Shown here piece by piece: positions 3,876 through 23,520 of a stretch of 64,000 bases of DNA (positions are counted from its first letter, which is position 1; every line of letters begins with the position of its first letter). Source of the stretch: an uncultured Eubacterium sp. GTDB taxonomy: Bacteria > Bacillota > Clostridia > Lachnospirales > Lachnospiraceae. The notes below the pieces were generated by a model, which saw nothing but the letters and a program-made list of their open reading frames with translations, made no database searches and was not told the origin of the DNA. The position numbers and the translations under genes are program-made. The stretch covers positions 1-64,000 of the forward strand of contig CATLIX010000002.1 of the NCBI GenBank assembly GCA_949959185.1. Reading direction: 5' to 3'.

Positions 3876-3920
3876 CCCCGGAGGGCTATCCAGATGGATT
3901 ACTCTCCGGGGTTTCTTTTT
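3876..3920 (+). terminator. Rho-independent terminator after the lipoprotein gene
   Basis: CCCCGGAG pairs with CTCCGGGG across a 20-nt loop and is followed by TTTCTTTTT. Confidence 0.85.
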
Positions 3921-4075: not shown

Positions 4076-5407
4076 TTACATATGTCCGCAGGCGTCCATG
4101 GCGGCCTCGTATACTCTGGAAAAGGGCACTTTGCACTGTTTGGCGGCGGCAGCCACATCTTCATATTCCGGTTTGTATTTGCTGATGCCGTATCCGGTGC
4201 TGATTTTGACTGTAATTTCTCCGTAGGGGGTGCGGACTTTACGGAACTGGGCCTCCAGTGTTCTGCGGTAGCAGGGCTGGATACGAATGCCTCTTGTGGT
4301 GGTATGGGTCAGTATCAGTCTGCTGAAACGGCTTTCTTCTTCCAGATTGCACAGGCAGGTCAGCAGAAGTCCGGGGCGGTTTTTCTTCATATGCACGGAA
4401 GTGGTGAAAACATCCAGTGCTCCCGCGTCCATCAGAAGGCTGACTGCATAGGAAATTGCTTCCGGCGTCATATCGTCCAGATTACAGGAAAGTTCCAGAA
4501 TCTGGTCAAGGCTGTGGAACTGTTCCGTATAAAAATCCGGGTGCGTTTCTTCTTCCGTAAACCGGGCCAGGGGTCTGGAGCTGTAAGAATCGGGAAGCTG
4601 TCTGGGAGAGGGAACCGGAAACAGGTTCATGTTTCCCTGGAATACCCGCAGGCAGTTGGCGGAGGGAAAATCTCCGGCGCCCATGCCGTAGCCTGTCTTT
4701 TCCACAGACATGGGAGGCATGGTAATGAACTGGCTGGCAAAATGTTTTAACAGGGCGGCGCCGGTGGGGGTGCACAGTTCGCCCTCAATGGTGCCGCAGT
4801 AAATGGGAACATCACGCAGAATTTCCGCAGTGGCCGGGGCAGGAACCGGAAGAATCCCGTGGGCACAGCGGACGCTGCCGCTTCCCACATGAACGGGAGA
4901 GGCGATAATCTGCTCCGGATTCAGAAGTTCCAGTAAAAGGCAGCAGCCTGTAACGTCCATCAGTGCGTCCAGTGTTCCCACTTCATGAAAATGAATCTGG
5001 GAAATATCTGTGTGATGGGCAGTGCTTTCCGCATTTCCAAGCAAAGTGTACACAGCCTTTGTGTGTTCTTTTACGGAAGAGGAAAGGGGCAGGCTGTCAA
5101 TTTTGGCCAGCATTTCCGGATAAGTGGTGTGAAGGCTGCGGTGCTGGACGTCTTCCGGATGAGAATGGCGGTCTTCCTGAGAGAGGAGTTCTTCCTCCGT
5201 CTGTCCCAGAATTACCACGTTCATTTTCGTGCCCCAGATTCCGCATTTCTCGGAAGGGCTGGCGGAAAGCATAATTTCGTCCGGAAAAAGACCGTTCATG
5301 GTTTCCAGAAACCGGTTCTGTTCCGATTCCGGTAAAAGTTCATAGAGAGCGCCCATCAGCATATCTCCGGCAGCGCCCATGTTGCATTCAATAAAAAGTG
5401 TTTTCAT
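4076..5407 (-). CDS. larC: Nickel-pincer cofactor biosynthesis protein LarC
   Basis: LarC is the CTP-dependent cyclometallase that inserts nickel into the pincer nucleotide cofactor of lactate racemase and related enzymes. The 443-residue product shows the family N-terminus with NMGAAGDMLMGAL, a histidine-rich segment at about residues 80-95 (RHSHPEDVQH) and IHFHEVGTLDALMD. The C-terminal part (LSCNLDDMTPE) is in the same frame. In Lactiplantibacillus the two halves are joined by a programmed frameshift, whereas here a single uninterrupted frame encodes both. The start overlaps the larB stop by 4 bp. Confidence 0.92.
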   Translation of the reverse strand: MKTLFIECNMGAAGDMLMGALYELLPESEQNRFLETMNGLFPDEIMLSASPSEKCGIWGTKMNVVILGQTEEELLSQEDRHSHPEDVQHRSLHTTYPEMLAKIDSLPLSSSVKEHTKAVYTLLGNAESTAHHTDISQIHFHEVGTLDALMDVTGCCLLLELLNPEQIIASPVHVGSGSVRCAHGILPVPAPATAEILRDVPIYCGTIEGELCTPTGAALLKHFASQFITMPPMSVEKTGYGMGAGDFPSANCLRVFQGNMNLFPVPSPRQLPDSYSSRPLARFTEEETHPDFYTEQFHSLDQILELSCNLDDMTPEAISYAVSLLMDAGALDVFTTSVHMKKNRPGLLLTCLCNLEEESRFSRLILTHTTTRGIRIQPCYRRTLEAQFRKVRTPYGEITVKISTGYGISKYKPEYEDVAAAAKQCKVPFSRVYEAAMDACGHM

Positions 5408-6165
5408 ATCTGATTACCTCCTGTATGATTAATCATGCTGGCAAGATAGCCGGCACCAAATCCATTGTCGATATTTACCACGCTGACGCCGCTGGCACAG
5501 GAATTCAGCATGGAAAGCAGTGCGGACAGGCCCTGAAAATTGGCTCCGTATCCGATACTGGTGGGAACCGCGATGACCGGACAGTCGCTTAAGCCTCCGA
5601 TTACGCTGGCAAGGGCTCCTTCCATTCCGGCAACCGCAACAATAACGGTGGCCTGGGAAATGCTGTCCACATGGGATAGCAGCCGGTGGATTCCGGCAAC
5701 GCCCACATCATAGAGGCGTTCCACCTGATTGCCCAGTACTTCTCCCGTAAGGGCTGCTTCTTCTGCCACCGGAATGTCGCTGGTGCCTCCGGTAGCTACC
5801 AGAATGGTGCCGGAAGCAGTGCGGTATTCCCTGCGGTTGACGATTCCGATACGGGAAAGTTTATCATAAGTAAGGGAAAAATGCAGGGACAGGTAAGAAG
5901 CAGATTCTTCGGAAAGCCGGGTAATCAGAATATTTTCCGAACAGTGGGATAACAGAGAATGGATGATACCCTCCATCTGTTCCGCTGTCTTTCCGGCGCC
6001 GTAAATCACTTCCGGAGTTCCCTGACGGATTTTCCGGTGATGGTCAATTTTGGCATATCCCAAATCTTCGAAAGGGCTGATTTTTAACTTTTCATAAGCA
6101 GTATGGATGTCCAGGGTGCCTTCCTGCACCTGCTGCAAAACGGACAGTATATGTTTTGATTCCAT
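5404..6165 (-). CDS. larB: Nickel-pincer cofactor biosynthesis protein LarB
   Basis: LarB carboxylates and hydrolyses nicotinic acid adenine dinucleotide in the first step of pincer-cofactor synthesis. The 253-residue protein has an N-terminal helical region and a C-terminal PurE-like (AIR carboxylase) fold, with VAGMEGALASVIGGL and PTSIGYGANFQGLSALL. The ATG at 6165 follows GGAGGTG by 8 nt. It is the promoter-proximal gene of a larBC operon. LarE (sulfur insertion) and any LarA-type racemase are absent from this window. Confidence 0.93.
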   Translation of the reverse strand: MESKHILSVLQQVQEGTLDIHTAYEKLKISPFEDLGYAKIDHHRKIRQGTPEVIYGAGKTAEQMEGIIHSLLSHCSENILITRLSEESASYLSLHFSLTYDKLSRIGIVNRREYRTASGTILVATGGTSDIPVAEEAALTGEVLGNQVERLYDVGVAGIHRLLSHVDSISQATVIVAVAGMEGALASVIGGLSDCPVIAVPTSIGYGANFQGLSALLSMLNSCASGVSVVNIDNGFGAGYLASMINHTGGNQI

Positions 6166-6199
6166 GGCAGCTTCACCTCCGTCTGAATAGTTATGAATA

Positions 6200-6228
6200 A
6201 TTATAGAATTTTATCACAGAATAGTCAA
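6200..6228 (-). promoter_or_regulatory. Predicted larBC promoter
   Basis: On the minus strand TTGACT (6223-6228) and a perfect TATAAT (6200-6205) are separated by 17 bp, 35 bp before the larB ATG. Confidence 0.7.
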
Positions 6229-6242
6229 GGAAGAGCTGGTAT

Positions 6243-6296
6243 CACCTTCATGCAGGCATGATTCGCCCATAATTTCGGCGATGGCTGAACTGTTAC
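6243..6296. repeat. Right-end remnant of the GTAACAGTTCAG element (family ii)
   Basis: The segment contains TTCATGCAGGCATGATTCG, then GGCGATGGCTGAACTGTTAC, which is the right end of the family-ii element found complete at 23712-23886. The left half is missing. From here to 6540 the sequence is AT-rich with no open frame I would support. Confidence 0.65.
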
Positions 6297-6540
6297 TTTT
6301 CCGGAAAATATAAAAAATTTTCTGTCACGAGCCTGTCCGCCGAATTATTTGAAAAAATGTGAAAAATGCCAGTTTTTTTATAAAATAATAGAAAATCATG
6401 GGAATTTATACAAAGTCAAAAAGAAAGAACAGACATAAAGTACCAGAGACAGGTATAACAATATGGATAAAACGAAAGAATATTAGTAAAAAAGCTATAT
6501 ATTTTTAGTAATATTACCTGCAGAGGCGGAAAATACGGAG

Positions 6541-6569
6541 TTGACAAAATGATAAAAAGGTGGCATAAT
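6541..6569 (+). promoter_or_regulatory. Predicted promoter of the HPr-like gene
   Basis: A perfect TTGACA is separated by 17 bp from CATAAT. The leader to the ATG at 6659 is about 83 nt and contains a small AAGTTC/GAACTT hairpin. Confidence 0.6.
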
Positions 6570-6658
6570 TTGCCACAAGTTCAGATAAGAACTTAACTGT
6601 GTTTGTAAATGCACATGGATGACGGTTCCAGAGTGCAGAATCAGAAAGGATGAGAACT

Positions 6659-6889
6659 ATGATGAATGAAAAAGTTATTAGATTGGCAGATGCAGATGAA
6701 GTATGTGATTTTGTACGTGCTGCTGGTATGTGTGACTTTGATATAGATATTTCGGACCAGCGCATGGTAATTGATGCCAAATCAATTCTGGGAGTAATGG
6801 GCCTGGGAGTGAAGAAGGAACTGACTGTAAAATATGGCGGGGAAGACCTTACCTTTGAGAATGTTCTGAGTAAGTATGCCATAGCATAA
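6659..6889 (+). CDS. HPr-like protein lacking the phospho-accepting histidine
   Basis: The 76-residue product matches the HPr fold. The C-terminal half has the family signature KSILGVMGLG, which includes the position of regulatory serine 46. Where HPr has the histidine-15 loop (GLHARPA type), this protein reads VCDFVRAAGMCD, with no histidine. It therefore cannot act as a normal PEP-dependent phosphocarrier. The start at 6659 is set by AAGGA 8 nt upstream; an ATG at 6650 overlaps that site. A terminator follows, so it stands alone. Confidence 0.8.
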   Translation: MMNEKVIRLADADEVCDFVRAAGMCDFDIDISDQRMVIDAKSILGVMGLGVKKELTVKYGGEDLTFENVLSKYAIA

Positions 6890-6921
6890 GGAACATTCCG
6901 CAATGTGAACAGAATCAGGTG

Positions 6922-6967
6922 AAACAGGGCTGCTGTACCGGGAAACATGGTGCGGCGGCCCTGTTTT
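6922..6967 (+). terminator. Terminator after the HPr-like gene
   Basis: AAACAGGGC pairs with GCCCTGTTTT across the loop, ending in TTTTG. Confidence 0.7.
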
Positions 6968-7237
6968 GCAGGTCTACGCTCCGCTTCGGTCCGCGCTAAA
7001 CGGACATCCACAGGATGTCCAGCGCCCCTCAGGATTGAGGGGGCCAGGTGAGTTGAAGTGGGCTTGCCCACTTTGTTCTCTTACAGGAAATATTGTGCCA
7101 CTGTGAAGTACTAAAGCATGTGGATTTCCTATAAGATAGAGCCCTCCGGGCGGGATGCGCAGCTCGCGGAGATGAAATTTATTGCCAGGCAATCCGCTCG
7201 CGCGCGAAGAATGTGCCTGCGCATTCTTTTTTACAGG
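6968..7237. repeat. Palindromic mosaic block (family iii)
   Basis: Consecutive short hairpins are visible: GGACATCC/GGATGTCC, CCCCTCAGGATTGAGGGG, GTGGGCTTGCCCAC, TTACAGGAAAT paired with ATTTCCTATAAGAT, and GAATGTGC/GCGCATTC. The first part matches 61343-61438, the middle matches 61451-61515, and the last part matches the left window edge. Confidence 0.75.
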
Positions 7238-7245
7238 AATTACGC

Positions 7246-7275
7246 TTGCAAAAGCCTTTTCTGTCATACTATAAT
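7246..7275 (+). promoter_or_regulatory. Predicted promoter of the nuclease-helicase gene
   Basis: TTGCAA and TATAAT are separated by 18 bp. The leader would be about 215 nt and includes further hairpin modules. Confidence 0.45.
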
Positions 7276-7292
7276 ATTTATATTACTCCGGC

Positions 7293-7462
7293 AATCAAAT
7301 ACCCCGCTGCAAGCAACGGGGTATTTGGTCTCCGCTTCGCTTCGGTCGGTGCTGAACGTGTGCCACTGGCACACAGCACCCCTCGCGGCATTCGTCAAAT
7401 AGCCATGCAAGCATGGCTATTTTCCTCATTGCTCGCGGGAATAAAATACCCGAAAGTCCAGT
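7293..7462. repeat. Hairpin modules in the helicase leader
   Basis: AAATACCCCG/CGGGGTATTT, GTGCCACTGGCAC and GCCATGCAAGCATGGC are short perfect hairpins in a row. The ATTCGTCAAATA and CATTGCTCGCGGGAATAAA parts recur at 21178-21233. The block lies in the presumed 5' leader of the helicase gene. No independent gene is seen. Confidence 0.6.
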
Positions 7463-7494
7463 CAGCAGCGCATATAGGAAGGGACAGAAAACAG

Positions 7495-9849
7495 ATGGAA
7501 CGAATAAAAATCTCGATACGGAATCTTGTGGAATTTATTCTGCGTTCCGGCGATATTGACAATCGAAAAGGCCGGGCCATGCAGAAAGAGGCCATGCAGG
7601 AGGGCAGCAGAATACACCGGAAAATCCAGAGGAGAATGGGCGCTTCCTATGAGCCGGAGGTTTTTCTGAAAACGGAACTGGTGCGGGAGCGGTACATTCT
7701 GGTTCTGGAAGGACGGGCGGACGGTGTAATTACGGAGGAAGAAAAAGTAACCATTGATGAAATAAAAGGGGTGTACCAGGATGTGAATTTCATGGAAGGG
7801 CCGGTTCCGGTTCATCTGGCCCAGGCAAAATGCTATGCTTATATGGTGGCTGCGGAACAGGAACTGCCGGAAATTTCTGTTCAGATGACCTACTGTAATC
7901 TGGATACGGAGGAAATCCGCAGATTTCAGGAGCATTACACGCTGGAAGAACTTGAGGAATGGTTTGAAGAACTGATTCGTGCATATGGAAGATGGGCGGA
8001 ATTTCAGTATGAGGCCAGATTGGAACGGAATACATCCATTGCCGGGCTGGAATTTCCCTTCCCCTATCGGGAGGGGCAGAGGGAACTGGCCGGCGACGTG
8101 TATCGTACCATTCACCGCAGGAAAACACTGTTTATCCAGGCGCCTACCGGAACAGGCAAGACCATCACTACGGTATTTCCGGCGGTGAAAGCTGTGGGAG
8201 AAGGGCTGGCAGACAAGATTTTCTATCTGACAGCCAAAACCATTACCAGGACTGTGGCGGGAGAAGCCTTCGGGCTGCTGCGGAACCTGGGGTACCGGGG
8301 ACGGATTCTCACCATTACTGCGAAGGAAAAGCTCTGCCTCTGTGAGGAAATGGACTGCAATCCGGTGCATTGCCCCTGTGCAAAGGGCCATTATGACCGG
8401 GTAAACGACGCAGTTTTTGATTTGCTCCGGAAAGAATATGAAATTACAAGGGAGATTCTGATACGTCAGGCGGAGGAATTTCAGGTGTGCCCCTTTGAAA
8501 TGTGTCTGGACACGGCCCTCTGGGTGGATGATATTATCTGTGATTATAATTATGTATTTGACCCCAATGTTTATCTGAAACGCTTTTTTGCGGAAGGAGT
8601 AAAAGGAGAATACCTGTTTCTGGTGGATGAAGCCCATAATCTGGCGGACCGGGCCAGAGAAATGTACAGCGCAGTTCTGTATAAGGAAGATTTTCTCCGT
8701 GTGAAAAAGATTTTAAAGAACCACAGCCTGAAATGCGTCCGGGGGCTGGAGCGGTGCAATAAACATCTGCTGGCAATGAAACGGGAGTGTGAAAACTGTG
8801 AGACGCTGGAAAGTATCAGCCCGCTGATTTTCTCCCTTATGCAGCTTGGGGCCGCAATGGAGGAATTCTTTTTAAAGGATATTGCATTTCCGGAGAAAAA
8901 GGAAGTGCAGGAATTTTATCTGGAGTTGCGGCATTTTCTGAACACGCATGAGCGGCTGGATGAAAATTATGTGATTTACACGGAGCATGAGACGGACAGG
9001 AGTTTTAAGCTGAAGCTGTTCTGTGTGAATCCGGCGGTAAATCTGCAGGAATGTCTGGATAAAAGCCGCAGTACCATCTTTTTTTCCGCCACTTTGCTGC
9101 CGATAAACTATTACAAGAAGCTGCTGAGCGCCAGAGAGGATAATTATGCGGTGTATGCCCGCACCTCTTTTCAGCAGGAACAGCATTTTCTGGCAGTGGG
9201 CACGGATGTGAGCAGCAGATATACCAGGAGAACAGAATCGGAATTTCAGAAAATTGCAGATTACATTTATGAGGCTTCCGGAGGGAAAACCGGAAATTAT
9301 ATGGTCTTTTTCCCTTCCTATAAAATGATGGAACAGGTATGGGAAAAGTTTCAGGCGCGGGAAGGAATCCGGGAGGAGCTGGACTGTGTCTGCCAGGAAA
9401 GCGGGATGACAGAACAGGAACGGGAGGAATTTCTGAGACTGTTTTCGGAAAAAAGAGAGAAAACCCTGATTGGCTTCTGCGTAATGGGAGGGATTTTTGC
9501 AGAGGGCATTGATTTGAAAGGGGAATCCCTGATTGGCGTGGTGATTGTGGGCACGGGGCTGCCTCAAATCAGCAACGAGCGGGAAATACTGAAACAGTTT
9601 TATGAGGAACGGGAACAGGCGGGATTTGCCTATGCATTCCGGTATCCCGGTATGAATAAAGTGCTGCAGGCGGCAGGGCGGGTAATCCGCACGGAAGAAG
9701 ACCGGGGCATTATTCTGCTGCTGGACGAACGTTTTCAGCAGCGGGAATATCAGTCTCTGTTTCCAAGAGAGTGGGAGTCATACCAGCCGGTCCGCCTTTC
9801 CGGGGTACGCCATGCGGTGGAAGCGTTCTGGAACAGGAGGAGTGTATGA
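7495..9849 (+). CDS. RecB-like nuclease fused to XPD/DinG-type helicase
   Basis: The 784-residue protein has an N-terminal PD-(D/E)XK domain of the RecB/Cas4 type: His41, GRAD with Asp76, ExK at Glu89-Lys91, and QAKCY (Gln110, Tyr114). The superfamily-2 helicase begins with APTGTGKT at 216-223 and has DEAH at 378-381. Seven cysteines at 281-337 are suited to an Fe-S cluster as in XPD and DinG. AGRVIR near the C-terminus is helicase motif VI. I chose the ATG at 7495 because homology begins there; the open frame extends upstream through repeat sequence. A role in DNA repair or replication-fork processing is inferred from the domains. Its stop codon overlaps the next (broken) reading frame as ATGA. 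Confidence 0.88.
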   Translation: MERIKISIRNLVEFILRSGDIDNRKGRAMQKEAMQEGSRIHRKIQRRMGASYEPEVFLKTELVRERYILVLEGRADGVITEEEKVTIDEIKGVYQDVNFMEGPVPVHLAQAKCYAYMVAAEQELPEISVQMTYCNLDTEEIRRFQEHYTLEELEEWFEELIRAYGRWAEFQYEARLERNTSIAGLEFPFPYREGQRELAGDVYRTIHRRKTLFIQAPTGTGKTITTVFPAVKAVGEGLADKIFYLTAKTITRTVAGEAFGLLRNLGYRGRILTITAKEKLCLCEEMDCNPVHCPCAKGHYDRVNDAVFDLLRKEYEITREILIRQAEEFQVCPFEMCLDTALWVDDIICDYNYVFDPNVYLKRFFAEGVKGEYLFLVDEAHNLADRAREMYSAVLYKEDFLRVKKILKNHSLKCVRGLERCNKHLLAMKRECENCETLESISPLIFSLMQLGAAMEEFFLKDIAFPEKKEVQEFYLELRHFLNTHERLDENYVIYTEHETDRSFKLKLFCVNPAVNLQECLDKSRSTIFFSATLLPINYYKKLLSAREDNYAVYARTSFQQEQHFLAVGTDVSSRYTRRTESEFQKIADYIYEASGGKTGNYMVFFPSYKMMEQVWEKFQAREGIREELDCVCQESGMTEQEREEFLRLFSEKREKTLIGFCVMGGIFAEGIDLKGESLIGVVIVGTGLPQISNEREILKQFYEEREQAGFAYAFRYPGMNKVLQAAGRVIRTEEDRGIILLLDERFQQREYQSLFPREWESYQPVRLSGVRHAVEAFWNRRSV

Positions 9850-15500: not shown

Positions 15501-16417
15501 AGGCCTGGACAGGCACCCTGGAAAACGTATTCCCTACCATTGCGGTGAAAGAAAAAGAGGAAGTCAGGACAGATTTGTTCCATACGGATAAAGTATATGT
15601 GTGCAGACATAAAGTGGCAAGGCCAACCGTGTTCATTCCCGTATTCCCAGGGACAAACTGTGAGTATGACAGTGCGAAAGCCTTTGAGCGGGCCGGAGCA
15701 GACACCATTGTAAAAGTGTTCCGGAACCTGAGCGGAACGGATATCCGGGAGTCCGTGGATGAATTTGTGGAAGCCATCGAGCAGTCCCAGATTATCATGT
15801 TCCCAGGGGGATTTTCTGCCGGGGACGAGCCGGAGGGAAGCGCGAAATTTTTTGCCAATGCCTTCCGTAATCCGAAAATGGCAGAAGCTGTCAATCGTCT
15901 TTTACAGGAACGGGACGGCCTGATGCTGGGTGTCTGCAACGGATTCCAGGCACTGGTGAAACTGGGCCTTGTGCCTTACGGGGAAATCCGCCAGCAGAGT
16001 GAAGATTCTCCCACATTGACCTATAATACCATTGGACGCCACATTTCCAAAATGGTCTATACGAAAGTAGTGACCGACAAATCTCCCTGGCTGGCACAGG
16101 CAGAACCGGGAAAAATATACTGTAACCCCGCTTCCCACGGGGAAGGACGTTTTGTTGCGCCGAAAGAATGGCTGGACAGACTGTTCGCAAACGGCCAGGT
16201 GGCGACCCAGTATGTGAATGAAAAAGGACAGCCCACCATGGACGAAGAATGGAATATCAACGGTTCTTATATGGCCATTGAAGGAATTACCAGCCCTGAT
16301 GGCAGGGTTCTGGGTAAAATGGCTCATTCCGAACGCCGGGGCAGAAGCGTGGCAGTGAATATCTATGGAGAACAGGATATGAAGCTGTTCGAGAGCGGCG
16401 TGGCGTATTTTAAATAA
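12572..16417 (+). CDS. purL: Phosphoribosylformylglycinamidine synthase, fused large form
   Basis: FGAM synthase converts FGAR, glutamine and ATP to FGAM in purine synthesis. The 1281-residue protein is the single-chain form: PurS-like N-terminus, two ATP-binding synthetase halves (ETHNHPTEIEPFGGAATC; IGGKDSMSGTF), and a C-terminal class-I glutamine amidotransferase. The amidotransferase shows PGGFSAGDEPEG, nucleophile Cys in GVCNGFQ, and NPASHGEGRF. AAGGAGGG precedes the ATG. It stands alone here, without other pur genes. The LysR gene is divergent and may or may not regulate it. Confidence 0.97.
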   Translation: MSNVRRIFVEKKPDFAIQARELQSEIRSYLGIRSVTGVRVLIRYDVENISEETYQKAIATVFSEPPVDDVYEEAFEAGSAQVFSVEYLPGQYDQRADSAEQCVKLLNETEHPIIRSATTYVIEGEVSPEQLEAIKNHCINPVDSRETGLEKPETLTDDFEEPEDVKILDGFTGLPEAELKNFYDSLGLAMTFKDFLHIQNYFQKEEKRNPSMTEIRVLDTYWSDHCRHTTFSTELKDVAFGEGFYREPMEETYQDYLNTHKEMYQGREDKFVCLMDLALMAMKRLKKEGKLEDQEESDEINACSIVVPVEVDGKTEEWLVNFKNETHNHPTEIEPFGGAATCLGGAIRDPLSGRTYVYQAMRVTGAADPTVSVRDTLEGKLPQKKLVRGAAHGYSSYGNQIGLATGYVKEIYHPDYVAKRMEIGAVMGAAPRRAVQRLTSDPGDVIILLGGRTGRDGIGGATGSSKAHNTESTAVCGAEVQKGNPPTERKIQRLFRREEVAHIIKKCNDFGAGGVSVAIGELADGLRVCLDKVPKKYAGLDGTEIAISESQERMAVVIAPEDKEQFLSWAKEENLEAVEVAVVTEEPRLVLEWRGKEIVNISRAFLDTNGAHQETSVKVDIPSQEENFFEKKEIPKVAEALKKGDMKKAWLATLSDLNVCSQKGLVEMFDGSIGAGSVFMPYGGTYQLTETQSMVAKLPVAEGNCDTVTMMAYGFDPELSSWSPYHGAVYAVLESMARIVAAGGDYRKIRFTFQEYFRRMNEHPSRWSQPFAALLGAYSAQIGFGLPSIGGKDSMSGTFNEIDVPPTLVSFAVDVAKEGDIITPELKQPGNKLMIFKIATDKYDLPVYGQVMKLYEAIHTLIQQKAIVSAYALDGKGIAAAVSKMAFGNKLGVTMESDVCSDCMFSPHFGKLIAEVPAEKTDFVTETIEKVMEPWAKAETEEGGCGHLSYCRIIGQVNDSQKFVYGTTEISMEEAIEAWTGTLENVFPTIAVKEKEEVRTDLFHTDKVYVCRHKVARPTVFIPVFPGTNCEYDSAKAFERAGADTIVKVFRNLSGTDIRESVDEFVEAIEQSQIIMFPGGFSAGDEPEGSAKFFANAFRNPKMAEAVNRLLQERDGLMLGVCNGFQALVKLGLVPYGEIRQQSEDSPTLTYNTIGRHISKMVYTKVVTDKSPWLAQAEPGKIYCNPASHGEGRFVAPKEWLDRLFANGQVATQYVNEKGQPTMDEEWNINGSYMAIEGITSPDGRVLGKMAHSERRGRSVAVNIYGEQDMKLFESGVAYFK

Positions 16418-16641
16418 AAAAATCAGAAAATTAACGATGATTGTTGGAAATTACAGAAGGGTATAGCGGGAAAATATATAAAAAATACGTATATTCAGAA
16501 GGGAAATTTGCATATAATGTACAAAAAGAATGCGGCGAAATATGTTTTAATTGACAGTTTAACAAAAAATGCATACAAGATGAAACAAAGTTAAAAAATT
16601 ACGATTCATTTGGTGATTATATAAGAAGAAGTATTTGACGG

Positions 16642-16682
16642 AAAGGACCCTTATTATTCTGAGACAGGGTCCTTTCTTTTTA
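16642..16682 (+). terminator. Rho-independent terminator
   Basis: AAAGGACCC pairs with GGGTCCTTT and is followed by CTTTTTAT. It lies 225 bp after purL and just before the AT-rich accessory operon. The 16418-16640 interval is AT-rich with no supported gene. Confidence 0.8.
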
Positions 16683-16727
16683 TGCCATAGGACAAATTTA
16701 TAAAGTACAATAAAGAGGGTAGTATAT

Positions 16728-17024
16728 ATGTATAATATTTGCAGGCCATTTGTTTTACACAATGATTTTCTTCCGCCGTCAAGAGAGGTTCATCAGGACT
16801 GGGACTATCTTTCTTATGGTTATTACGACGGTATTTCAGTAGGGAAAAATCTTTTTTCAGACGGAACGATTGATTAAAAAAAGTTATGGGAATATTCTGT
16901 AGAACGGAGTACCCTGATGACAGGAAAGTGTCAGGAACAGGTAATCTATGGATTTCGGAGCGAGAAAGACGGAAGTTGGGAAGGAAGTTTTTGGGATGAC
17001 GCTATACTTATCAAAATTGCCTGA
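16728..17024 (+). pseudogene. Small protein gene with in-frame stop, first cistron of the DAC operon
   Basis: An ATG at 16728, 8 nt after AAAGAGGG, opens 49 codons rich in aromatic and acidic residues (HQDWDYLSYGYYDGISVG). The frame stops at TAA 16875-16877. The same frame then runs open for another 48 codons (KKLWEYSVERS to FWDDAILIKIA) to TGA 17022-17024. The sense-like second half suggests one ancestral protein of about 98 residues or the N-terminus of a longer one, interrupted by a nonsense change. Alternatively the 49-residue product is real and complete. I do not recognise the family. The next frame begins 6 nt after the second stop. Confidence 0.55.
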
Positions 17025-17029
17025 CAGGA

Positions 17030-18637
17030 GTGACCACTATTATAGGAAATCCTAATCAGAGGGAAAAAGCGGTACATGAAACATTTACCAGTGCGCCGAA
17101 ATCAGATAAAAAGCAGGCGGATTCCGGAAGTTTAAGCAGTATGCTGCGTAATGCATTTGGTGAGATGAAATTAATTAATAGTACGGATTGTGTGCGTTGT
17201 CACAATCTGAAGAAGGATTTGTATCAGACATTGAATGTATTGCAGAGATTTGAAACGACTTCTTTTTCAGATTATGTATTCCGAACATTGCTTATGCCCT
17301 TGCATATGGTAAAAAATATTATGGAAAAGGCATGTACAATAGAGGAAAAGGATAAGTTATTTGAATCTTTTTATGATTTGTTCAAAGGAATCAGTTTATA
17401 TGCGCAGAATTCGGTAAAATCCGATCGGCAATTTACACAGTCTCTGGATTATAATATCAGAATTTATCAAACCCCGGTAAAGTTGAATGCATTTTATAAC
17501 GCCTATATTTATAATCTGAAAGAATATTTGAATTCCATGGAAAATGACGATGGAAATTACTATTCGTTATTACAGGATTTCCCTTCAGGGAGAGCGGCTG
17601 GAAGAAATTCCGGAAGAATACTGGAAGGGACTGGAAAAAGTAGTAGAAGTTCGTTTACAGAAAAAGATGGGACAACAGAAAAGCAGGGATTATATACAGA
17701 GCAGGTATCTGGGCATATCAGAAAAAGAAATAGAAAAAATGGAAGAAGAACTGGAAAAATACGGGGTATATAGCAGTATACTGAATCTGTTACTGCAGGA
17801 GAGTATGAAAGAAATTCTGGAAGAATCAGAAGAACTGTTTTCTTATCTTCTGGAAGATATATTTATGAGAACGCTGGAGAAATCTGATTCAAAAAATGCA
17901 GAGCAGGAACGAAAAAGGCTGAGGAAAAAATTCAGAAAATTACGAATGAATGGCTTACGGAGTCTCCCTGGAATAAGACCATGACGAATTTATCAGCGTC
18001 TATGGACTTGCTCATAGAGAATTTCAAGGAATGTGTGGCAGATGTGATAGGAATTTTAACGCTGCGGCTTTCCATGTTTGATTATCTGGATTCTGTTATT
18101 CAAAGCAACTCAGACCAGGGACGTGTTGATATTGTGAATACAAAAGCGTTGGTAAGATGCGCATTGGTTGTTTATTGTATGACAGAATCAGGGGATGATT
18201 TGAGATATTACTGGAGCCGCGAGGAACTGCAGAAAATCAATGAATCTGGTGATGAGAGAGTCGTTAAGTTTAAAAATAGTATAGGCAAGTTTTTAGAGGA
18301 GTATTTTTATGAGAAAGAATCTCAGACAAAATTTCCTGAAATAGCTGATTATAAAAAGAGTGCTGTGAATATCCTGTATGATGCATTTGTTCTGCAGGAA
18401 TTGGGAATGTATTTATCTGTATGCAGAAAAACTTTTGAAGAACGTAATAATATGGAAAAAAGGTTTCAACAAAAAGAACTGATAGATGTATATAAATTGC
18501 AGCGGGAAAATAATATTGAAACATTTATTTTGGGAGTACAGAAATATATATTTGATTATCAGAATGTCGTGACTGAAAAGATGAGAGGATTAGCCGGGGA
18601 GAAGGATTATGGAAAAAACAGGAAGGCAAATATATGA
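17030..18637 (+). pseudogene. Unknown helical protein, about 535 residues, with two compensating frameshifts
   Basis: Three overlapping open frames form one protein. Frame one runs from GTG 17030 to about 17577. Frame two runs to about 17907. The first frame then resumes to 18637. Removing one C from the CCC at about 17581-17583 and adding one A to the run at about 17911-17915 gives a continuous product (DFLQGERLEEIP; ERKKAEEKIQKITNEW). The protein is helical and charged, with a possible CVRCHNLK knuckle near residue 60 and an acidic middle part. I recognise no family. No ribosome site is clear at 17030. It lies between the small gene and the DAC gene, overlapping the latter by 29 bp, so co-expression is likely. 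Real decay, sequencing error or slippage are all possible. Confidence 0.6.
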
Positions 18638-19949
18638 ACCGAATATTTGCAGATATGCAGTATTTCTTTTGGAAAAAAACTTTTCGGAATTAAAGGGAAA
18701 AATTAAGATATATGTACTTTGTGGAGAAAAAAGCAATGATAGTATAACAGGCTTTGAAGAAGGGTATGAAATACTGGCTGAGAAAACATCTGTTTTAAAG
18801 GATTCCCGTGTTCAGGGCTGGGGAAAGGAAAAAGCGGTCTGTTGGTTGTTTCTGGCAAAGGGGACGTCTGAAGCAGCGATGGCACTGGCAGAACTGGTAT
18901 TGGATGAATTACAGGAAAAATTTACAGATTATCTTTATATTGAGAGATTGGAATCCATAAGTTCCGAATGGATAAAAGGAAAAGAGCTAAGTGACAGAAG
19001 AAGAGAGTATTTTTTTGGATTTATCCAGGATGGTGAAAAGCTGCGAAATGAATGTGTAAAAAAGATACTTAAGAAGAATCAACTTCCTCCCTGGCAGTTG
19101 TTAGTGCAGATATCTTCCCGGCTTTATGAAAAACGCCCATTGAACACAAGGTTATATTTTATTCCGGATGATACTTTTCCAGATGTGCCATGTGTTCGGC
19201 TGGAAGGCGATAGTTCAGATGAAAAATGGGAAGAAAAATATAAGCTCTCAGAGAAAAATCTGCGAACTGTAAGAAAAATGATGGAAGCGGCTCATGATGG
19301 TCAGGGAATTTTGGTATCAATGAAGGAATATGTAATACGGAAGATTGTCGGACAGGAAGATTGTGAAAAGATTGCGAGGGTATGTATTCACTTTCAGGGA
19401 CATTTGAACTGGAAAGTTATTATAGAAGGGAAAGATGTACTTTGGTATCGAGGCGGAGAGTATCAGTTTCCGGCGTTGGGAGAGGCAGAGCCGGAACATA
19501 TTCAAAAACTGAAAAAAATGGACCTTGACGATGGTAAAAGAGAGAATATTAAGAAAATTATAGAAAAACTTTCCAGGCAACCTCACGGAACATCTGTGGT
19601 TTTTATGGATGAAAGATCTTTAAAGGATGAAATAGAACGTCTGGCCGGTTTGAACAGATTACATAAGGTGAAAGCATTTCAACTCATGGAGCAGGAAGAT
19701 GGGATGATAATGGGAATTACTGCCATAGATGGTGCGTTAATGGCCAATCTGGATGGAATGTGCTGTGCAATTGGTGCAATTCTGGATGGGGATGCAGTAG
19801 TCAGAGGTGATCCGGGGCGTGGTTCACGATATAATTCTCTTGCCAATTATATCGCACGCTTTAAGCAGAAAAAGAAAGCAGGAAAAGGTACATGCTTTGC
19901 AGTTATTTTTTCAGAAGATGAAAGAATTGATATTGAAACAGCAAAATAA
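18609..19949 (+). CDS. DAC/DisA_N-domain protein (predicted diadenylate cyclase-like)
   Basis: The 446-residue product ends in a segment resembling the diadenylate-cyclase fold. HGTSVVF (326-332) is the first core strand, DGA occurs at 374-376, and GRGSRYNSLANY (403-414) stands where c-di-AMP synthases have the RHR motif. The RYN form resembles that of DAC domains with specialised N-terminal sensor domains rather than housekeeping CdaA/DisA. Residues 1-300 are an unrecognised, probably sensory region. If active it would make c-di-AMP or a related dinucleotide. The start at 18609 follows GGGAGAAGG and overlaps the preceding frame. A terminator follows. The gene is intact although its upstream partners are broken, and its codons are AT-rich compared with neighbours. 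Confidence 0.7.
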   Translation: MEKTGRQIYEPNICRYAVFLLEKNFSELKGKIKIYVLCGEKSNDSITGFEEGYEILAEKTSVLKDSRVQGWGKEKAVCWLFLAKGTSEAAMALAELVLDELQEKFTDYLYIERLESISSEWIKGKELSDRRREYFFGFIQDGEKLRNECVKKILKKNQLPPWQLLVQISSRLYEKRPLNTRLYFIPDDTFPDVPCVRLEGDSSDEKWEEKYKLSEKNLRTVRKMMEAAHDGQGILVSMKEYVIRKIVGQEDCEKIARVCIHFQGHLNWKVIIEGKDVLWYRGGEYQFPALGEAEPEHIQKLKKMDLDDGKRENIKKIIEKLSRQPHGTSVVFMDERSLKDEIERLAGLNRLHKVKAFQLMEQEDGMIMGITAIDGALMANLDGMCCAIGAILDGDAVVRGDPGRGSRYNSLANYIARFKQKKKAGKGTCFAVIFSEDERIDIETAK

Positions 19950-19967
19950 TAAAAGCATTATGAAAAT

Positions 19968-20009
19968 GACTATGAAGTGGGAGATGATTCTGATTTCATA
20001 GTCGTTTTT
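19968..20009 (+). terminator. Terminator of the DAC operon
   Basis: GACTATGAA pairs with TTCATAGTC, followed by GTTTTTC. Confidence 0.8.
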
Positions 20010-20021
20010 CTGTCAAAACAA

Positions 20022-20050
20022 TTGATAAAGTCACACGGACCCGTTATAAT
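20022..20050 (+). promoter_or_regulatory. Predicted promoter of the Rpn-like pseudogene
   Basis: TTGATA and a perfect TATAAT are separated by 17 bp, about 50 bp before the ATG at 20102. Confidence 0.6.
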
Positions 20051-20101
20051 GGCAGTACAGAGAACTCTGTGCCTGAGAGAGAATTTCACATAACTACATA
20101 G

Positions 20102-21148
20102 ATGAAAAATAAAAAAGTGCGGTGGCATCCGGGATTTGTGGCGGCAATCACCCTGGAGCTGAAGCAGAATCGGGAGAACCTGCTGATTCAGAGTGAATAC
20201 AACCTGAACACAAAGCCGCTGGAAGTAGACGTACTGATTATCCGAAAGGAAAAGACGGAAGAAATCAGGAATGAAATCGGAAAGTTTTCCGCGGCCACAA
20301 CCTTCTGGAATATAAATCACCGGAAGACCATCTGGATGTGGACACCTTTTATAAGGTAACAGCTTATGCCGGGCTGTACAAATCCTATGGAAAAAGCCTG
20401 GATGAGCGAAAAGCCTATGATATTACCATCACTTTTGTTCGGGAGAAAAGGCCGGAAGGACTGTTCCGGTATTTCCGGGAACATGGACACGAGCTGTTAA
20501 AATCCTGTGAGGGAATCTATCAGGTGAAAGGAAATGTGCTGTTTCCCACGCAGATGGTGGTAACAGGAGAGCTGGATGTGGAAAAGCATACCTGGCTGAG
20601 GGCATTGTCCGGAAAAGTGGAAAAAGAGACAGCAGGAAAAAGTACCAGGTAAAACGTAACAGTTCAGCCCACGCCCCTTTAAACAGGCCACAGACCGCCT
20701 GCCAGGCAGGTTGTCCGCTGCTGACGCAGCTCTTGTCTGCGGCTTAAGGGACGTTCCGTTCATAGTCTGTATTTTGTGCTCATTCATGCAGGCATGATTT
20801 GCACAGAATACAGACTATGGCTGAATTGTTACGATAAAACTGCTGGAAGGAAAAGAAGAAAGAGAACTGGCAGATTCGGTGCTGAAAGTCATGCTGGAGG
20901 CAAATCGTAAGAAGATAGAAACCTGGAAAGGGGATGAAGATATGTTTGAAACGCTGATGGAGATCATGGAGCCCCAGATACAAATGAGGGAAGCGAAGAT
21001 AAGAATGGAAGAAAGAACAGAAGGGATTCGGGGAACAGTGGAAGCCCTCCGGGAATTCGGTCATGGAGATGGGGAAATAAAGACAGTGCTTATGAAGAAA
21101 TATGGACTTATGGAAGAAGAGGCGAAGGGGTATCTGATGAAAAGATGA
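20102..21148 (+). pseudogene. Rpn/PD-(D/E)XK transposase-like gene broken by a frameshift and an element insertion
   Basis: The first part (20102 to about 20288) reads WHPGFVAAITLELKQNREN and EVDVLIIRK, as in Rpn-type recombination-promoting nuclease/transposase proteins. A one-base deletion in the T-run near 20284 shifts the frame. The correct continuation (KFFRGHNLLEY, then DTFYKVTAYAGLYKSYG) goes on to about 20652. The family-ii element at 20656-20832 is then inserted. The C-terminal part resumes as LLEGKEERELADSVLKVMLE and ends at 21148. The remains correspond to roughly 290 residues of ancestral coding sequence. It is not functional as it stands. Confidence 0.85.
20656..20832. mobile_element. 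Family-ii miniature element (177 bp), copy a, inside the Rpn-like gene
   Basis: The ends are GTAACAGTTCAGCC and GGCTGAATTGTTAC. The left part folds as nested hairpins (CGCCTGCCAGGCAGG; GCTGCTGACGCAGC). The right part is a long stem formed by CATAGTCTGTATT and AATACAGACTATG around TTCATGCAGGCATGA. TAAAAC occurs just left of the left end and 2 bp right of the right end, a possible target duplication. Its position within coding sequence shows the family has moved. Confidence 0.85.
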
Positions 21149-21177
21149 TGGAGATATATATGCCTGAAAAATTTAAT

Positions 21178-21250
21178 AATTCGTCAAATATCCGGCAGGC
21201 GCAGCTGCATGGCCCATTGCTCGTGGGAATAAAGTGGACATTCGGGCATT
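21178..21250. repeat. Palindromic module shared with the helicase leader
   Basis: ATTCGTCAAATA and CCCATTGCTCGTGGGAATAAA match 7390-7446. It fills most of the gap between the Rpn-like pseudogene and the secreted-protein terminator. Confidence 0.5.
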
Positions 21251-21296
21251 TCCAGGCTTCAAGGACATCCGACACAATAAGTTATAATTTACAGTT

Positions 21297-21338
21297 GAAA
21301 AAAGAAACGTTCCGTCCATGAATATCACAGACGGAACG
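21297..21338 (-). terminator. Terminator of the secreted-protein gene
   Basis: On the minus strand CGTTCCGTC pairs with GACGGAACG, followed by TTTCTTTTTT. Confidence 0.8.
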
Positions 21339-21399
21339 CTTCTTTGGTTATAATGGTTTTTTTATGTTGTGAAAAAGTGGTTAGCATTATGTAAAGTTT

Positions 21400-22293
21400 T
21401 TATTTCCACTTAAGGGTATAATATCCGGAAGAAGTTTTATTATAACGTTCTACTTTTACATAGTAAGTACCAGGGTCAATACCAAAAGTTCTGCCAGTAG
21501 GTATTCCATTTCTGGTTTCCTCAATGTAATAGGAAGTGGAATCTTTTGAAACTTTCAGGTTTGCCAGGTCATAGTTATTGCTTCCCGATACAAATGGTTT
21601 ACCATTGCTTGCGCAAAGAGTGAATTTAATTCCATTGTTATAATAAATAGAGGTACCGCTTGAAGATAAAACAGCACCGTTTGTTTTAGCACTGTAAGTT
21701 AATTTTAATTTCTGCTTTTTGGTCAGTTTGATTTTATACCAGTCAACAGTTTTATCGCCTGCGATAATAACGCCCGTTGCAGTTTTTCCCTCTTTCAGCG
21801 TTTTTGCTTTCCCCCTGGAAGTATTGGAACCTTTCTTAAGAGAAGTCACAGTTGCTTTAACCTTTACACCGCCCATGCTCTCTACTTTGAAGTAATAGGT
21901 GCTTCCTTTTTTTACTCCATAGGTCCGTGTGTAATATCTTGTAGCTGATTCGCTGGTATCGAAATATTCACGAGTCTGGCCAAGAGCAGAAGTTTTGCTT
22001 TTGTTAAATGTAATATAACCATAGGCACCGCCGGAAACAACGGAACTGTTATTTGATATCTTGATGGTAATATAACCGGTTACGTTAGATTTGAATTTGA
22101 TAAAATTGGCTTCTTTGGTTGCACCCCAACATTCCTCATCTGAAATTGTAGCAGTAGATGTTCCCTTACCGTTAAAACTCAAATCTTCTGCTGCTTCCAC
22201 CTGCTGAGGAGTTGCCACAGCAAATACGGAAACCATCATAACTGCTGCAAGTACAAGACTTACAATTTTGTTACATTTTTTTCCTTCTCTCAT
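21400..22293 (-). CDS. Secreted protein with repeated beta-rich (PPC-like) domains
   Basis: The 297-residue product has an N-terminal signal peptide (basic n-region, SLVLAAVMMVSVFAV core, cleavage probably after VEA-A). The mature part is rich in Ser, Thr, Lys and Tyr. It seems to carry two beta-sandwich modules: one around residues 45-150 ending YYFKVESMGGVKVKATV, and one at about 165-297 (DWYKIKLTKKQKLKLTY, ending GTYYVKVERYNKTSSGYYTL). The pattern resembles bacterial pre-peptidase C-terminal domains. I start at 22293, because the upstream ATG at 22302 overlaps the ribosome site. It is probably exported and cell-associated; function unknown. Confidence 0.8.
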   Translation of the reverse strand: MREGKKCNKIVSLVLAAVMMVSVFAVATPQQVEAAEDLSFNGKGTSTATISDEECWGATKEANFIKFKSNVTGYITIKISNNSSVVSGGAYGYITFNKSKTSALGQTREYFDTSESATRYYTRTYGVKKGSTYYFKVESMGGVKVKATVTSLKKGSNTSRGKAKTLKEGKTATGVIIAGDKTVDWYKIKLTKKQKLKLTYSAKTNGAVLSSSGTSIYYNNGIKFTLCASNGKPFVSGSNNYDLANLKVSKDSTSYYIEETRNGIPTGRTFGIDPGTYYVKVERYNKTSSGYYTLKWK

Positions 22294-22414
22294 AATGTAC
22301 ATTCCTTTCCTGATTAAATTCTGACAGGAACTTTAACTTTCATATAACCAGAAAACGGATGATGATTTCCTGTATATATAAAGCTACTGTCACATCTTAT
22401 CCTGTCTCTTATAA

Positions 22415-22441
22415 TTTATAACATAACTTTGGAAATGTCAA
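22415..22441 (-). promoter_or_regulatory. Predicted promoter of the secreted-protein gene
   Basis: On the minus strand TTGACA (22436-22441) is followed by TATAAATTATAA after 15 bp; TAAATT at 17 bp spacing is the alternative -10. The leader is about 120 nt. Confidence 0.45.
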
Positions 22442-22470
22442 TATTTTGTGAAAAAAATGTGAAAAAAGGA

Positions 22471-22634
22471 GTAACAGTTCAGCCATAGCCTGTGTTCTGT
22501 GTAAGTCATGCCTGCATGTATGCGCACAGAATGCAGGCTACGAGCGGAGCGCCCTTTCATGAGCAAAAGTAGTTGCAGCGCAACGGAGAAGCACCGCAGG
22601 TGCGTTTTGCGAATGGCACGGGTTGAACTGTTAC
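22471..22634. mobile_element. Family-ii miniature element, copy b (164 bp)
   Basis: It is bounded by GTAACAGTTCAGCC and GTTGAACTGTTAC. The interior differs from copies c/d: a long hairpin around CATGCCTGCATG, then GAAGCACCGCAGGTGCGTTTT. It lies between the divergently placed promoter of the secreted-protein gene and the 3' end of the HAD gene. Confidence 0.75.
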
Positions 22635-22668
22635 AAAAAGGGTGAAATGCTATCCCTGTTCCCGAAGC

Positions 22669-23520
22669 TCAGCCTGTCCACTTTTCCAGCATGGCGGCTA
22701 CTCCATGCTGGTCGTTGCTCAAAGTGACGTCGTCAGCCTGGCTGCGAATTTCTTCCGGAGCATTTGCCATGGCCACGCCCAGTCCTGCAGCTTTCATAAT
22801 GTCCAAATCGTTCTCGCTGTCTCCGCAGGCAATGGTGTGTTCCATTGAAATATCCAGGTAACTGCACAGCAGTGACAGACCTCTGGCCTTGGAGATGCCT
22901 GTTCCGGTAAATTCCAGATTGCCGTAGCCGCCGGAAAGATAGCTGATGTCCGGATACTGCTCCAGAATCCGGATGGCATTATCCCGGTCTGTGTAGTTCC
23001 CGTCGAGGTCTGTCAGAAAATTTAAGGTGAGCTTCTGGACGGGAGCCTGATGTTCCCGGAGAAAAGAAACCATATCCGGGATACTTTCACGGGTGGAGAG
23101 AATGTATTGTTTCAGAGAATCCGGGAGACTGTCTATTTTCAGAAAGGTTTCCCGGCACTGTTCGGGGGTATAGGCGTCGCCATGGATGAACAAATCCATG
23201 TGAATTTCCAAGTTCAGCAGTTCTTCCACAATATCGGCTGCCAGGCTGGCAGACATGCAGTTTTCAAACAGACATTCTTTTTCCGGAACCTTGTAAATAC
23301 CGGCTCCGTTTGTGGTGATGGCATACCGGATGCCAAGTTCGGTCATCAGTTCCAGAGGAAGTCCCCTGTAAGGACGTCCGGTGGATATCACAAAAGTAAT
23401 GCCCCGGCGGGCGGCTTCCCGGATAGCAGCTTTGTTTTCATCGGAAACCTGGCTTTCAGAGTTGAACAACGTACCGTCCAAATCCAGGGCGACCAGTTGA
23501 AACTTTCTTTTTGCATTCAT
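22669..23520 (-). CDS. Cof-type HAD-family sugar/nucleotide phosphatase
   Basis: The 283-residue protein has all HAD motifs: LDLDGTLFN (nucleophile and acid aspartates), STGRPY, the conserved lysine before GLSLL, and CGDSENDLDIMK. The large central cap is of the Cof/YidA C2b type. It probably dephosphorylates a small phosphorylated metabolite; the substrate is not predictable. The start at 23520 follows GGAGG. Both flanks hold family-ii miniature elements. Confidence 0.9.
   Translation of the reverse strand: MNAKRKFQLVALDLDGTLFNSESQVSDENKAAIREAARRGITFVISTGRPYRGLPLELMTELGIRYAITTNGAGIYKVPEKECLFENCMSASLAADIVEELLNLEIHMDLFIHGDAYTPEQCRETFLKIDSLPDSLKQYILSTRESIPDMVSFLREHQAPVQKLTLNFLTDLDGNYTDRDNAIRILEQYPDISYLSGGYGNLEFTGTGISKARGLSLLCSYLDISMEHTIACGDSENDLDIMKAAGLGVAMANAPEEIRSQADDVTLSNDQHGVAAMLEKWTG

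What the first reader, a model, noticed from the sequence alone, without database searches (positions are those of the whole stretch)
16728..19949. AT-rich three-gene operon ending in a DAC-domain protein: candidate cyclic-dinucleotide signalling or defence system
Seen: the terminator at 16642-16682, then a small aromatic/acidic protein, an unrecognised about 535-residue helical protein, and a 446-residue protein whose end carries DGA (374-376) and GRGSRYNSLANY (403-414), all closely spaced or overlapping, followed by a terminator. Established: DGA and RHR-type motifs build the active site of diadenylate cyclases (CdaA, DisA). Comparative work by Burroughs, Aravind and colleagues noted DAC domains with alternative N-terminal sensors in conflict-associated contexts. 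Inference: this is not the housekeeping enzyme but an accessory nucleotide-signalling unit whose N-terminal 300 residues and upstream partner are undescribed to me.
Basis: partly seen in the sequence, partly recalled or inferred. Interest (0 to 1): 0.78.

Follow-up and report, generated by a model that had tools for sequence, protein, structure and literature searches.

The report
Broken peptidase–cyclase defence-like gene pair
This gut-bacterium DNA holds a worn-out copy of a two-gene unit, a zinc-peptidase-like protein next to a signal-making cyclase; intact relatives swap the cyclase for other likely cell-stopping proteins, as virus-defence systems do.

Summary
The 446-aa ORF (18609-19949) is real and has the DAC (diadenylate-cyclase) fold, but the 'three-gene operon' is a two-gene operon whose first gene is broken. 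In Eubacterium sp. 14-2 that gene is one intact 894-codon ORF at the same site after purL; the window copy has an in-frame stop, two large deletions (one removes HExxH) and shifted frames, and a second genome of the species shares the lesions. An intact paralogue pair (902 + 440 aa) lies elsewhere in the genome.

The partner is an HExxH...ExxxD (gluzincin-like) protein without a database family. At 11 intact loci its operon neighbour is a DAC in 5, SIR2 in 2, a multi-TM protein in 3 (one in this genome), unclear in 1. The DAC is kin to DS2_3, an anti-phage DAC, but has no CBASS genes beside it. All 18 accessory DACs compared read G[AS]R[YFH]N[ST] where the genome's own CdaA reads GTRHRA.

Best reading: a decayed member of a new HExxH-centred, output-swapping, defence-like family in which the DAC is one of several outputs. 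Mechanism and defence are inferred, not shown.

The parts
16640..16683 (+). intrinsic-terminator-like hairpin upstream of the operon (stem 16640-16677, then U-run)
   Evidence: -18.6 kcal/mol, z -3.63, 0 of 200 shuffles as good
16728..17006 (+). piece 1 of the broken HExxH-partner gene (N-terminal 'GYYD' region); in-frame TAA at 16875-16877
   Evidence: tblastn to paralogue residues 5-97, 48% identity; stops
17007..17008 (+). junction of a 565-nt deletion relative to Eubacterium sp. 14-2
   Evidence: alignment; the same in G224
17009..17555 (+). piece 2 of the broken partner gene (ORF called from 17030)
   Evidence: 38% identity to paralogue residues 284-472
17555..17556 (+). junction of a 239-nt deletion; the relative's HEVGHFVG motif lies in the lost stretch
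   Evidence: HEVGH at residue 518 of the relative
17556..17925 (+). piece 3 of the broken partner gene, in another frame (ORF 17544-17984)
   Evidence: 26% identity to paralogue residues 540-665; 1-nt length difference near 17926
17926..18637 (+). piece 4 of the broken partner gene; keeps the FKECVAD (E..AD) motif
   Evidence: 30% identity to paralogue residues 662-890
18609..19949 (+). DACNH-DAC protein, 446 aa, intact ORF
19101..19418 (+). DACNH 'probable sensor' domain (residues 165-270)
   Evidence: Pfam PF21750 E 2.7e-5, 24.4 bits, curated cut-off 27
19560..19946 (+). DAC domain (residues about 318-446)
   Evidence: Pfam PF02457 E 0.016, 15.2 bits, cut-off 27, residues 318-412; PDB Foldseek: CdaA/DisA
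19728..19736 (+). DGA motif (residues 374-376)
   Evidence: DGA in 16 of 18 accessory DACs, DGT in 2
19821..19838 (+). GSRYNS motif (residues 405-410) where canonical DACs have RHR
   Evidence: G[AS]R[YFH]N[ST] in 18 of 18 accessory DACs; GTRHRA in the genome's own CdaA
19962..20009 (+). terminator-like hairpin after the operon
   Evidence: -23.6 kcal/mol, z -6.91, 0 of 200 shuffles as good

Best explanation
The locus is a decayed copy of a two-gene unit: (1) an about 900-residue protein with an N-terminal 'GYFD' region and a C-terminal HExxH...ExxxD zinc-peptidase-like domain, and (2) a DACNH-DAC protein. Shown by sequence: gene 1 is broken here and in a second genome of the species; intact pairs exist, one in the same genome; gene 1's family keeps its likely metal-site residues, and its operon neighbour is a DAC, a SIR2 protein or a multi-TM protein in different loci. 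Inferred: it is a modular anti-phage (abortive-infection type) system in which the HExxH protein is the common trigger, perhaps by cleaving or releasing its partner, and the second gene is the output: NAD+ loss (SIR2), membrane damage (TM), or, for the DAC, a burst of c-di-AMP or a related nucleotide made from ATP. The host has its own CdaA and so presumably c-di-AMP receptors, so an uncontrolled DAC could arrest growth without a dedicated receptor gene. In the window copy the trigger is gone; the DAC is an orphan, silent or under another control. My grades: gene identities and decay about 0.95; partner exchange about 0.85; defence about 0.6; HExxH as trigger and DAC as output about 0.4.
For: Intact syntenic gene in Eubacterium sp. 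14-2 and lesion list, the same in G224 (11 differences and no length difference over window 16650-20000). Intact paralogue pair. Pairs in G111, 1XD21-72 and An81, the last with the gene order reversed. HExxH and the E and D of a later E..xD at 11 of 11 intact loci; in the 8-row core alignment 11 columns are invariant, 6 of them the residues of HExxH and ExxAD. SIR2 beside it in 2 loci (PF13289 E 4e-15 and 5.9e-17, gaps of 2 and 3 nt); TM proteins in 3 (3-4 hydrophobic segments each). The SIR2 protein of G900 matches PADLOC models ThsA, LmuA and Dsr2. The DAC matches DS2_3 (E 2.2e-30); mutants of two predicted catalytic residues of the DS-2 DAC lost phage defence (PMC13092281, passages).
Against: No phage or enzyme data. 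The HExxH proteins have no significant match in Pfam (all 11 scanned, 1XD21-72 as core only), NCBIfam (4 of 11 scanned) or PADLOC (5 of 11 scanned), and no PDB fold match; the model is poor (pLDDT 56.7). The cores were cut around HExxH and E..xD found by pattern (A, S or P allowed before the D), so the exact 11 of 11 is partly by construction. 'TM' rests on a hydropathy threshold alone. The DAC-type loci sit beside housekeeping genes (purL, ribosomal proteins, and by eye lysC- and ferredoxin-oxidoreductase-like genes), not in evident defence islands. The unit is rare; 1 of 11 intact loci (G647) has no clear partner. In the DAC tree G898, which has no HExxH partner, falls inside the HExxH-paired group (96/90). 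The window DAC was under constraint over the time compared (dN/dS 0.25).
Confidence: 0.55

Rival explanations
1. CBASS-like order: the DAC is sensor and signal maker and the HExxH protein is the effector, a protease switched on by the DAC's nucleotide through its N-terminal alpha/beta region.
For: The DAC carries a domain that Pfam calls a probable sensor; in DS-2 the DAC sits with CBASS; the HExxH residues are kept; the partner's N-terminal half is predicted as alpha/beta.
Against: SIR2 and multi-TM proteins, normally effectors (recalled), occupy the DAC's place in 5 of 10 loci with an assigned partner; no nucleotide-sensor domain was found in the 4 full-length HExxH proteins scanned; the N-terminal model is low-confidence.
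Confidence: 0.25
2. The altered R-[YFH]-N-S/T site makes these DACs bind nucleotides without making c-di-AMP (another product, a linear product, or none), so that they act as decoy, sponge or different messenger.
For: 18 of 18 accessory DACs compared depart from RHR, while the genome's own CdaA has GTRHRA.
Against: Two proteins over the DS2_3 cut-off (Gluconobacter 712 bits, Citrobacter 804 bits) have the same RYNS, and mutation of two predicted catalytic residues of the DS-2 DAC ended defence (passages). The DGA/DGT motif is kept in all 18.
Confidence: 0.25
3. A stress or osmoregulation module that uses c-di-AMP and has nothing to do with phages.
For: Chromosomal sites beside housekeeping genes; no phage record matched the SIR2-type HExxH protein of G900, and no viral contig was confirmed for the partner alignments.
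Against: Patchy presence of the DAC (3 of 29 genomes of the genus; 3 of 200 of the family; own genome counted in both), a SIR2 protein in the DAC's place in 2 loci, mosaic divergence of the paralogue partner between two genomes of one species, kinship with DS2_3.
Confidence: 0.12
4. The window gene is not decayed but a working split gene (re-initiation or frameshifting).
For: The pieces lie in one direction with small gaps or overlaps; in the TM-type loci of C14 and G097 the HExxH protein is in two ORFs.
Against: The HExxH-bearing stretch is absent, not just out of frame; the partner is a single ORF in all 5 intact DAC-type pairs.
Confidence: 0.03

Closest known systems
DS-2 anti-phage system (DefensePredictor, PMC13092281, passages only; NCBIfam NF053872 DS2_3)
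   Same: Kindred DACNH-DAC protein; the two proteins over the DS2_3 cut-off that I compared have the same RYNS motif; the DAC is needed for defence in DS-2 (passages)
   Different: DS-2 has a phospholipase and a CD-NTase beside the DAC (seen here in Gluconobacter and Citrobacter plasmids); this family has an HExxH protein instead. NF053872 score of the window protein is 105.5 bits against a cut-off of 630.
Housekeeping diadenylate cyclases CdaA and DisA
   Same: DAC fold, DGA motif
   Different: RHR replaced by R-[YFH]-N-S/T; DACNH region before the DAC domain; patchy accessory gene; the genome has its own CdaA
Partner-swapping immune systems such as long-B prokaryotic Argonautes with distinct effectors (PMC10620215, start of abstract only)
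   Same: One conserved protein paired with different outputs; recalled: SIR2, membrane and nuclease types there
   Different: The conserved protein here is an HExxH protein, not an Argonaute, and one of the neighbours is a DAC
Gluzincin zinc peptidases (Pfam M48 and relatives)
   Same: HExxH followed 160-239 residues later by E..xD; that this is the gluzincin pattern is recalled
   Different: No significant Pfam match (M48 in 2 of 5 cores, best E 0.06), no fold match, large extra N-terminal region in the fused forms

Membership tests
DAC (PF02457, diadenylate cyclases) | DAC fold | tested here: met
   Model pLDDT 70.9; the first 12 PDB matches are CdaA/DisA, probability 0.97-1.00, E 4e-3 to 9e-2, TM by target up to 0.62; none at E <= 0.001
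DAC (PF02457, diadenylate cyclases) | Pfam gathering score | tested here: not met
   15.2 bits against 27 for the window protein; met by relatives An81 (33.7) and L017 (28.2)
DAC (PF02457, diadenylate cyclases) | DGA motif | tested here: met
   Residues 374-376; DGA in 16 of 18, DGT in 2 of 18 accessory DACs
DAC (PF02457, diadenylate cyclases) | RHR motif | tested here: not met
   RYN here; R[YFH]N in 18 of 18 accessory DACs; RHR in own CdaA
DAC (PF02457, diadenylate cyclases) | c-di-AMP synthesis | not testable with these tools
   needs an enzyme assay
DS2_3 / DS-2 system | NF053872 curated cut-off | tested here: not met
   105.5 against 630 bits, residues 213-442 only
DS-2 / CBASS | CD-NTase and phospholipase beside the DAC | tested here: not met
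   None recognised by eye in the ORF lists between purL and the secreted-protein gene or beside the C19 pair
Gluzincin metallopeptidase (partner) | HExxH plus downstream glutamate in E..xD | tested here: met
   11 of 11 intact loci, E..xD located by pattern; in the window copy the HExxH stretch is deleted
Gluzincin metallopeptidase (partner) | Profile or fold match to a known peptidase family | tested here: inconclusive
   Pfam M48 E 0.06 at best; no PDB fold match with a low-confidence model
Anti-phage system | Protection against phage | not testable with these tools
   needs plaque assays

The most novel reading that the evidence does not exclude
A new class of modular immune system centred on a zinc-peptidase-like trigger with interchangeable outputs (DAC, SIR2, membrane protein), in which a diadenylate-cyclase relative with a family-wide R-[YFH]-N-S/T site is used as a growth-stopping output, possibly with a product other than c-di-AMP. 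A strain can carry several types at once, as this genome does (two DAC-type loci, one of them broken, and one TM-type).
Probability: 0.4. Interest if true: 0.85.

Novelty: new variant of a known kind. Interest (0 to 1): 0.62.

Why it matters
By the DefensePredictor paper, DACs had not been validated in phage defence before DS-2 (passages), where the DAC comes with CBASS. An HExxH-DAC pair without CBASS, and kindred HExxH proteins paired with SIR2 or membrane proteins, would show a separate route by which a DAC enters a conflict system, add an uncatalogued trigger or peptidase family, and give a direct test of whether a c-di-AMP-type enzyme can be a terminal output. Intact pairs for such a test lie in the same genome and in Eubacterium sp. 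14-2.

Tried and rejected
Rejected: the 535-residue ORF (stops). PADLOC Csm2 (E 3.6e-4) and GajA (E 0.003) hits on window fragments: weak, and absent from the intact partners scanned (P0005, P0008). Rfam: nothing at gathering score in 16000-21000. PDB sequence searches with the DAC and partner alignments gave no believable relative: mostly helical proteins, and toxin light chains at E about 0.6, which I did not pursue. hhalign of A3 to one CdaA sequence was uninformative (probability 0.4). Partner-model fold search: no hit at E <= 0.001; weak likenesses of the low-confidence N-terminal half to tandem alpha/beta folds are not claimed.

Dropped before counting: G140 (27-residue match in a 63-aa frame; no DAC ORF seen); G157 (no ORF listed around the match has HExxH; a histidine-kinase-like ORF lies there); G991 (the ORF at the matched place lacks HExxH). 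Not counted as separate loci: G224 copies (same species) and L014, L015, L018 (the same contigs as G203, G111, G028 by length and place).

Papers: PMC13092281 passages only; all others search listings or abstract starts. Galperin 2023 and Burroughs 2015 are not held, so what they say about DACNH or DAC neighbourhoods is unread. No paper on an HExxH-DAC or HExxH-SIR2 unit appeared in the lists returned; these are capped lists of one open-access library, so that is no proof of absence.
Full report
What is there. The rest of the 'operon' is not three genes. The frame 17030-18637 has stops at 17771 and 17885 before its end, and the frame of the small first ORF stops at 16875. tblastn with the intact paralogue of the same genome shows that the pieces from 16728 to 18637 belong to one gene.

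Decay. Eubacterium sp. 14-2 (NZ_KE159567.1, the same contig as G203:C1 by length and place; same genus) has the pair at the same place after purL, with an 894-codon partner and a 452-codon DAC. Against it the window copy has a 565-nt and a 239-nt deletion and a 1-nt length difference near 17926 in the partner gene, besides the in-frame stop; the DAC gene differs by one 3-nt gap. A second genome of the species (G224) has the same gaps, with 11 differences and no length difference over window 16650-20000, so this is not an error of one assembly. The 239-nt deletion removes the HEVGHFVG stretch. Pairwise dN/dS (NG86) to Eubacterium sp. 14-2 is 0.25 for the DAC, 0.10, 0.13, 0.41 and 0.27 for the four partner pieces, 0.071 for the last 663 codons of purL, 0.069 for the HAD gene and 0.157 for the secreted-protein gene; between the two genomes of the species the DAC differs at 6 non-synonymous and 3 synonymous codons. 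The DAC evolves fast and was constrained over the time compared; whether it still is cannot be told from nine codons.

The DAC. Pfam gives DACNH (E 2.7e-5, 24.4 bits) and DAC (E 0.016, 15.2 bits), both below their cut-off of 27; some relatives exceed it. The AlphaFold model (pLDDT 70.9) matches CdaA and DisA first: the top 12 of 106 matches, probability 0.97-1.00, E 4e-3 to 9e-2; the other shown matches have 0.12 or less, and none reaches E 0.001. The genome's housekeeping CdaA is a separate gene. NCBIfam's DS2_3 anti-phage model matches at E 2.2e-30 over residues 213-442, far below its cut-off (105.5 of 630 bits). In the DefensePredictor paper DS-2 is phospholipase + cGAS + DAC; two catalytic-residue mutants of the DAC lost defence, and 15 of 30 DAC homologues lay beside a CBASS (PMC13092281, passages). 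Of six plasmid DAC relatives, the Gluconobacter and Citrobacter loci have the DS-2 arrangement and one Priestia locus has a nucleotidyltransferase; in the incomplete annotation within 5 kb the other three show neither. In an alignment of 18 accessory DACs, DGA is in 16 and DGT in 2 (the DS-2-like ones), and G[AS]R[YFH]N[ST] in 18 of 18, where CdaA has GTRHRA.

Distribution. DAC: 3 of 200 genomes of the family and 3 of 29 of the genus, the own genome counted in both; 7 of 392 of the order, own included, of which G140 was dropped; 5 loci in genome contigs, 3 of them already known; 1 in viral contigs. The DAC tree joins the window, Eubacterium, C19, G111 and 1XD21-72 (100/99); G898, which has no HExxH partner, is next to them (96/90), then An81 with weak support (83/54) and the partnerless L017 (91/90). 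So the HExxH-paired DACs are near each other but not alone in their group. Other DAC neighbours seen: an HD protein with dGTPase-model matches beside the G631 DAC, and a calcineurin-like phosphoesterase matching PDC-S60 and a CBASS endonuclease effector beside the G898 DAC.

The partner. Intact DAC-linked partners (5 loci: C19, Eubacterium 14-2, G111, 1XD21-72, An81) are 894-973 aa and have no significant Pfam or NCBIfam match where scanned (4 of 5 at full length; all 5 cores against Pfam). They keep HEV[GA]HFVG and, later, E..AD in 5 of 5. Early, longer profiles found nothing new (1 of 398 and 2 of 391 genomes, own included, G991 dropped). A profile of the 5 cores (A5) matched 4 of 392 genomes of the order: own, An81, and new loci in G900 and G647; it also showed a third locus in the own genome, C14. 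The 8-row profile A6 matched 7 of 160 genomes of the family: own, An81, G111, new loci in G149, G097 and G035, and G157, which was dropped. At the 11 intact loci HExxH is present and is followed 160-239 residues later by E..xD (AD in 9, SD and PD in one each). I cut the cores around these motifs and allowed A, S or P before the D, so the exact count leans on the search pattern; the profile hits themselves do not. No partner match in plasmids with the C19, An81 and G900 proteins, none in phages with the G900 protein, the only one tried there, none confirmed in viral contigs.

Exchange of the neighbour. DAC: 5 loci, overlapping genes, in An81 with the order reversed. SIR2: G900 and G149, 2 and 3 nt after the HExxH gene; PF13289 E 4e-15 and 5.9e-17; 40% identical to each other. 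Membrane protein: G000:C14 (561 aa, 4 hydrophobic segments), G097 (379 aa, 3), G035 (428 aa, 4), by a hydropathy threshold. In C14 and G097 the HExxH protein is in an N-terminal and a C-terminal ORF; in G097 ambiguous bases lie at the split, so that split may be an artefact. Unclear: G647 (an AAA_35 protein on the same strand, 132 nt away). The HExxH tree holds the SIR2 pair (100/99) and four DAC loci (100/100) as groups and leaves An81 and the TM loci unresolved; partner types need 3 changes, as few in 15 of 200 shuffles. The number of exchanges is therefore unsure, but exchange itself follows from the neighbours.

Site. In the genus the stretch after purL is variable: in L055 and L061, for example, the HAD gene that in the window begins about 6 kb after purL lies within 160-360 bases of it. 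The paralogue's partner gene differs at 66 synonymous and 66 non-synonymous codons between the two genomes of the species while its DAC differs at one; the difference peaks in the last third of the partner and falls to zero at the DAC: a mosaic, as from recombination.

How it may work. Steps shown: gene identities, decay, conserved likely metal-site residues, different neighbours. Inferred: the HExxH protein is the constant part and so the likely trigger; SIR2 and TM proteins are effector-like by analogy (recalled), so the DAC in their place is likely the output, acting through c-di-AMP or a related nucleotide or by using up ATP. The opposite order (DAC signals, HExxH acts) remains possible. 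The window copy cannot work as a pair.

Verdict. The named copy is a relic, and the value lies in the family it points to.

Noticed in passing
G000:C14 (locus L086) 3639-7913: A third locus of the same HExxH family in the window's own genome, with a 561-aa membrane protein instead of a DAC and the HExxH protein in two ORFs.
   Followed up: partly
L003 7938-10646 against L013 4245-6953: The paralogue's partner gene is 92.7% identical in protein between two genomes of one species while the neighbouring DAC is 99.8%; divergence peaks in the C-terminal third.
   Followed up: partly
L034 9027-11915: A DACNH-DAC gene next to an HD-domain protein with dGTPase-model matches (G631): possibly another DAC partner type.
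   Followed up: partly
L031 1485-10169: A calcineurin-like protein (PDC-S60 and CBASS-endonuclease matches), a DAC, and ORFs that look by eye like a recombinase and an AAA plus subtilase pair, on one 11-kb contig (G898).
   Followed up: partly
window 16418-22670: The stretch between purL and the HAD gene looks like variable cargo in the genus; at least two relatives have the HAD gene close after purL.
   Followed up: partly
window 20102-21148: Broken ORFs that look (by eye, recalled) like remains of an Rpn-type nuclease/transposase gene.
   Followed up: no
L022 1-2963: A viral-contig DAC close to the DS2_3 model (578 bits, cut-off 630) next to an ORF that looks like a phage integrase, at the contig edge.
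   Followed up: no
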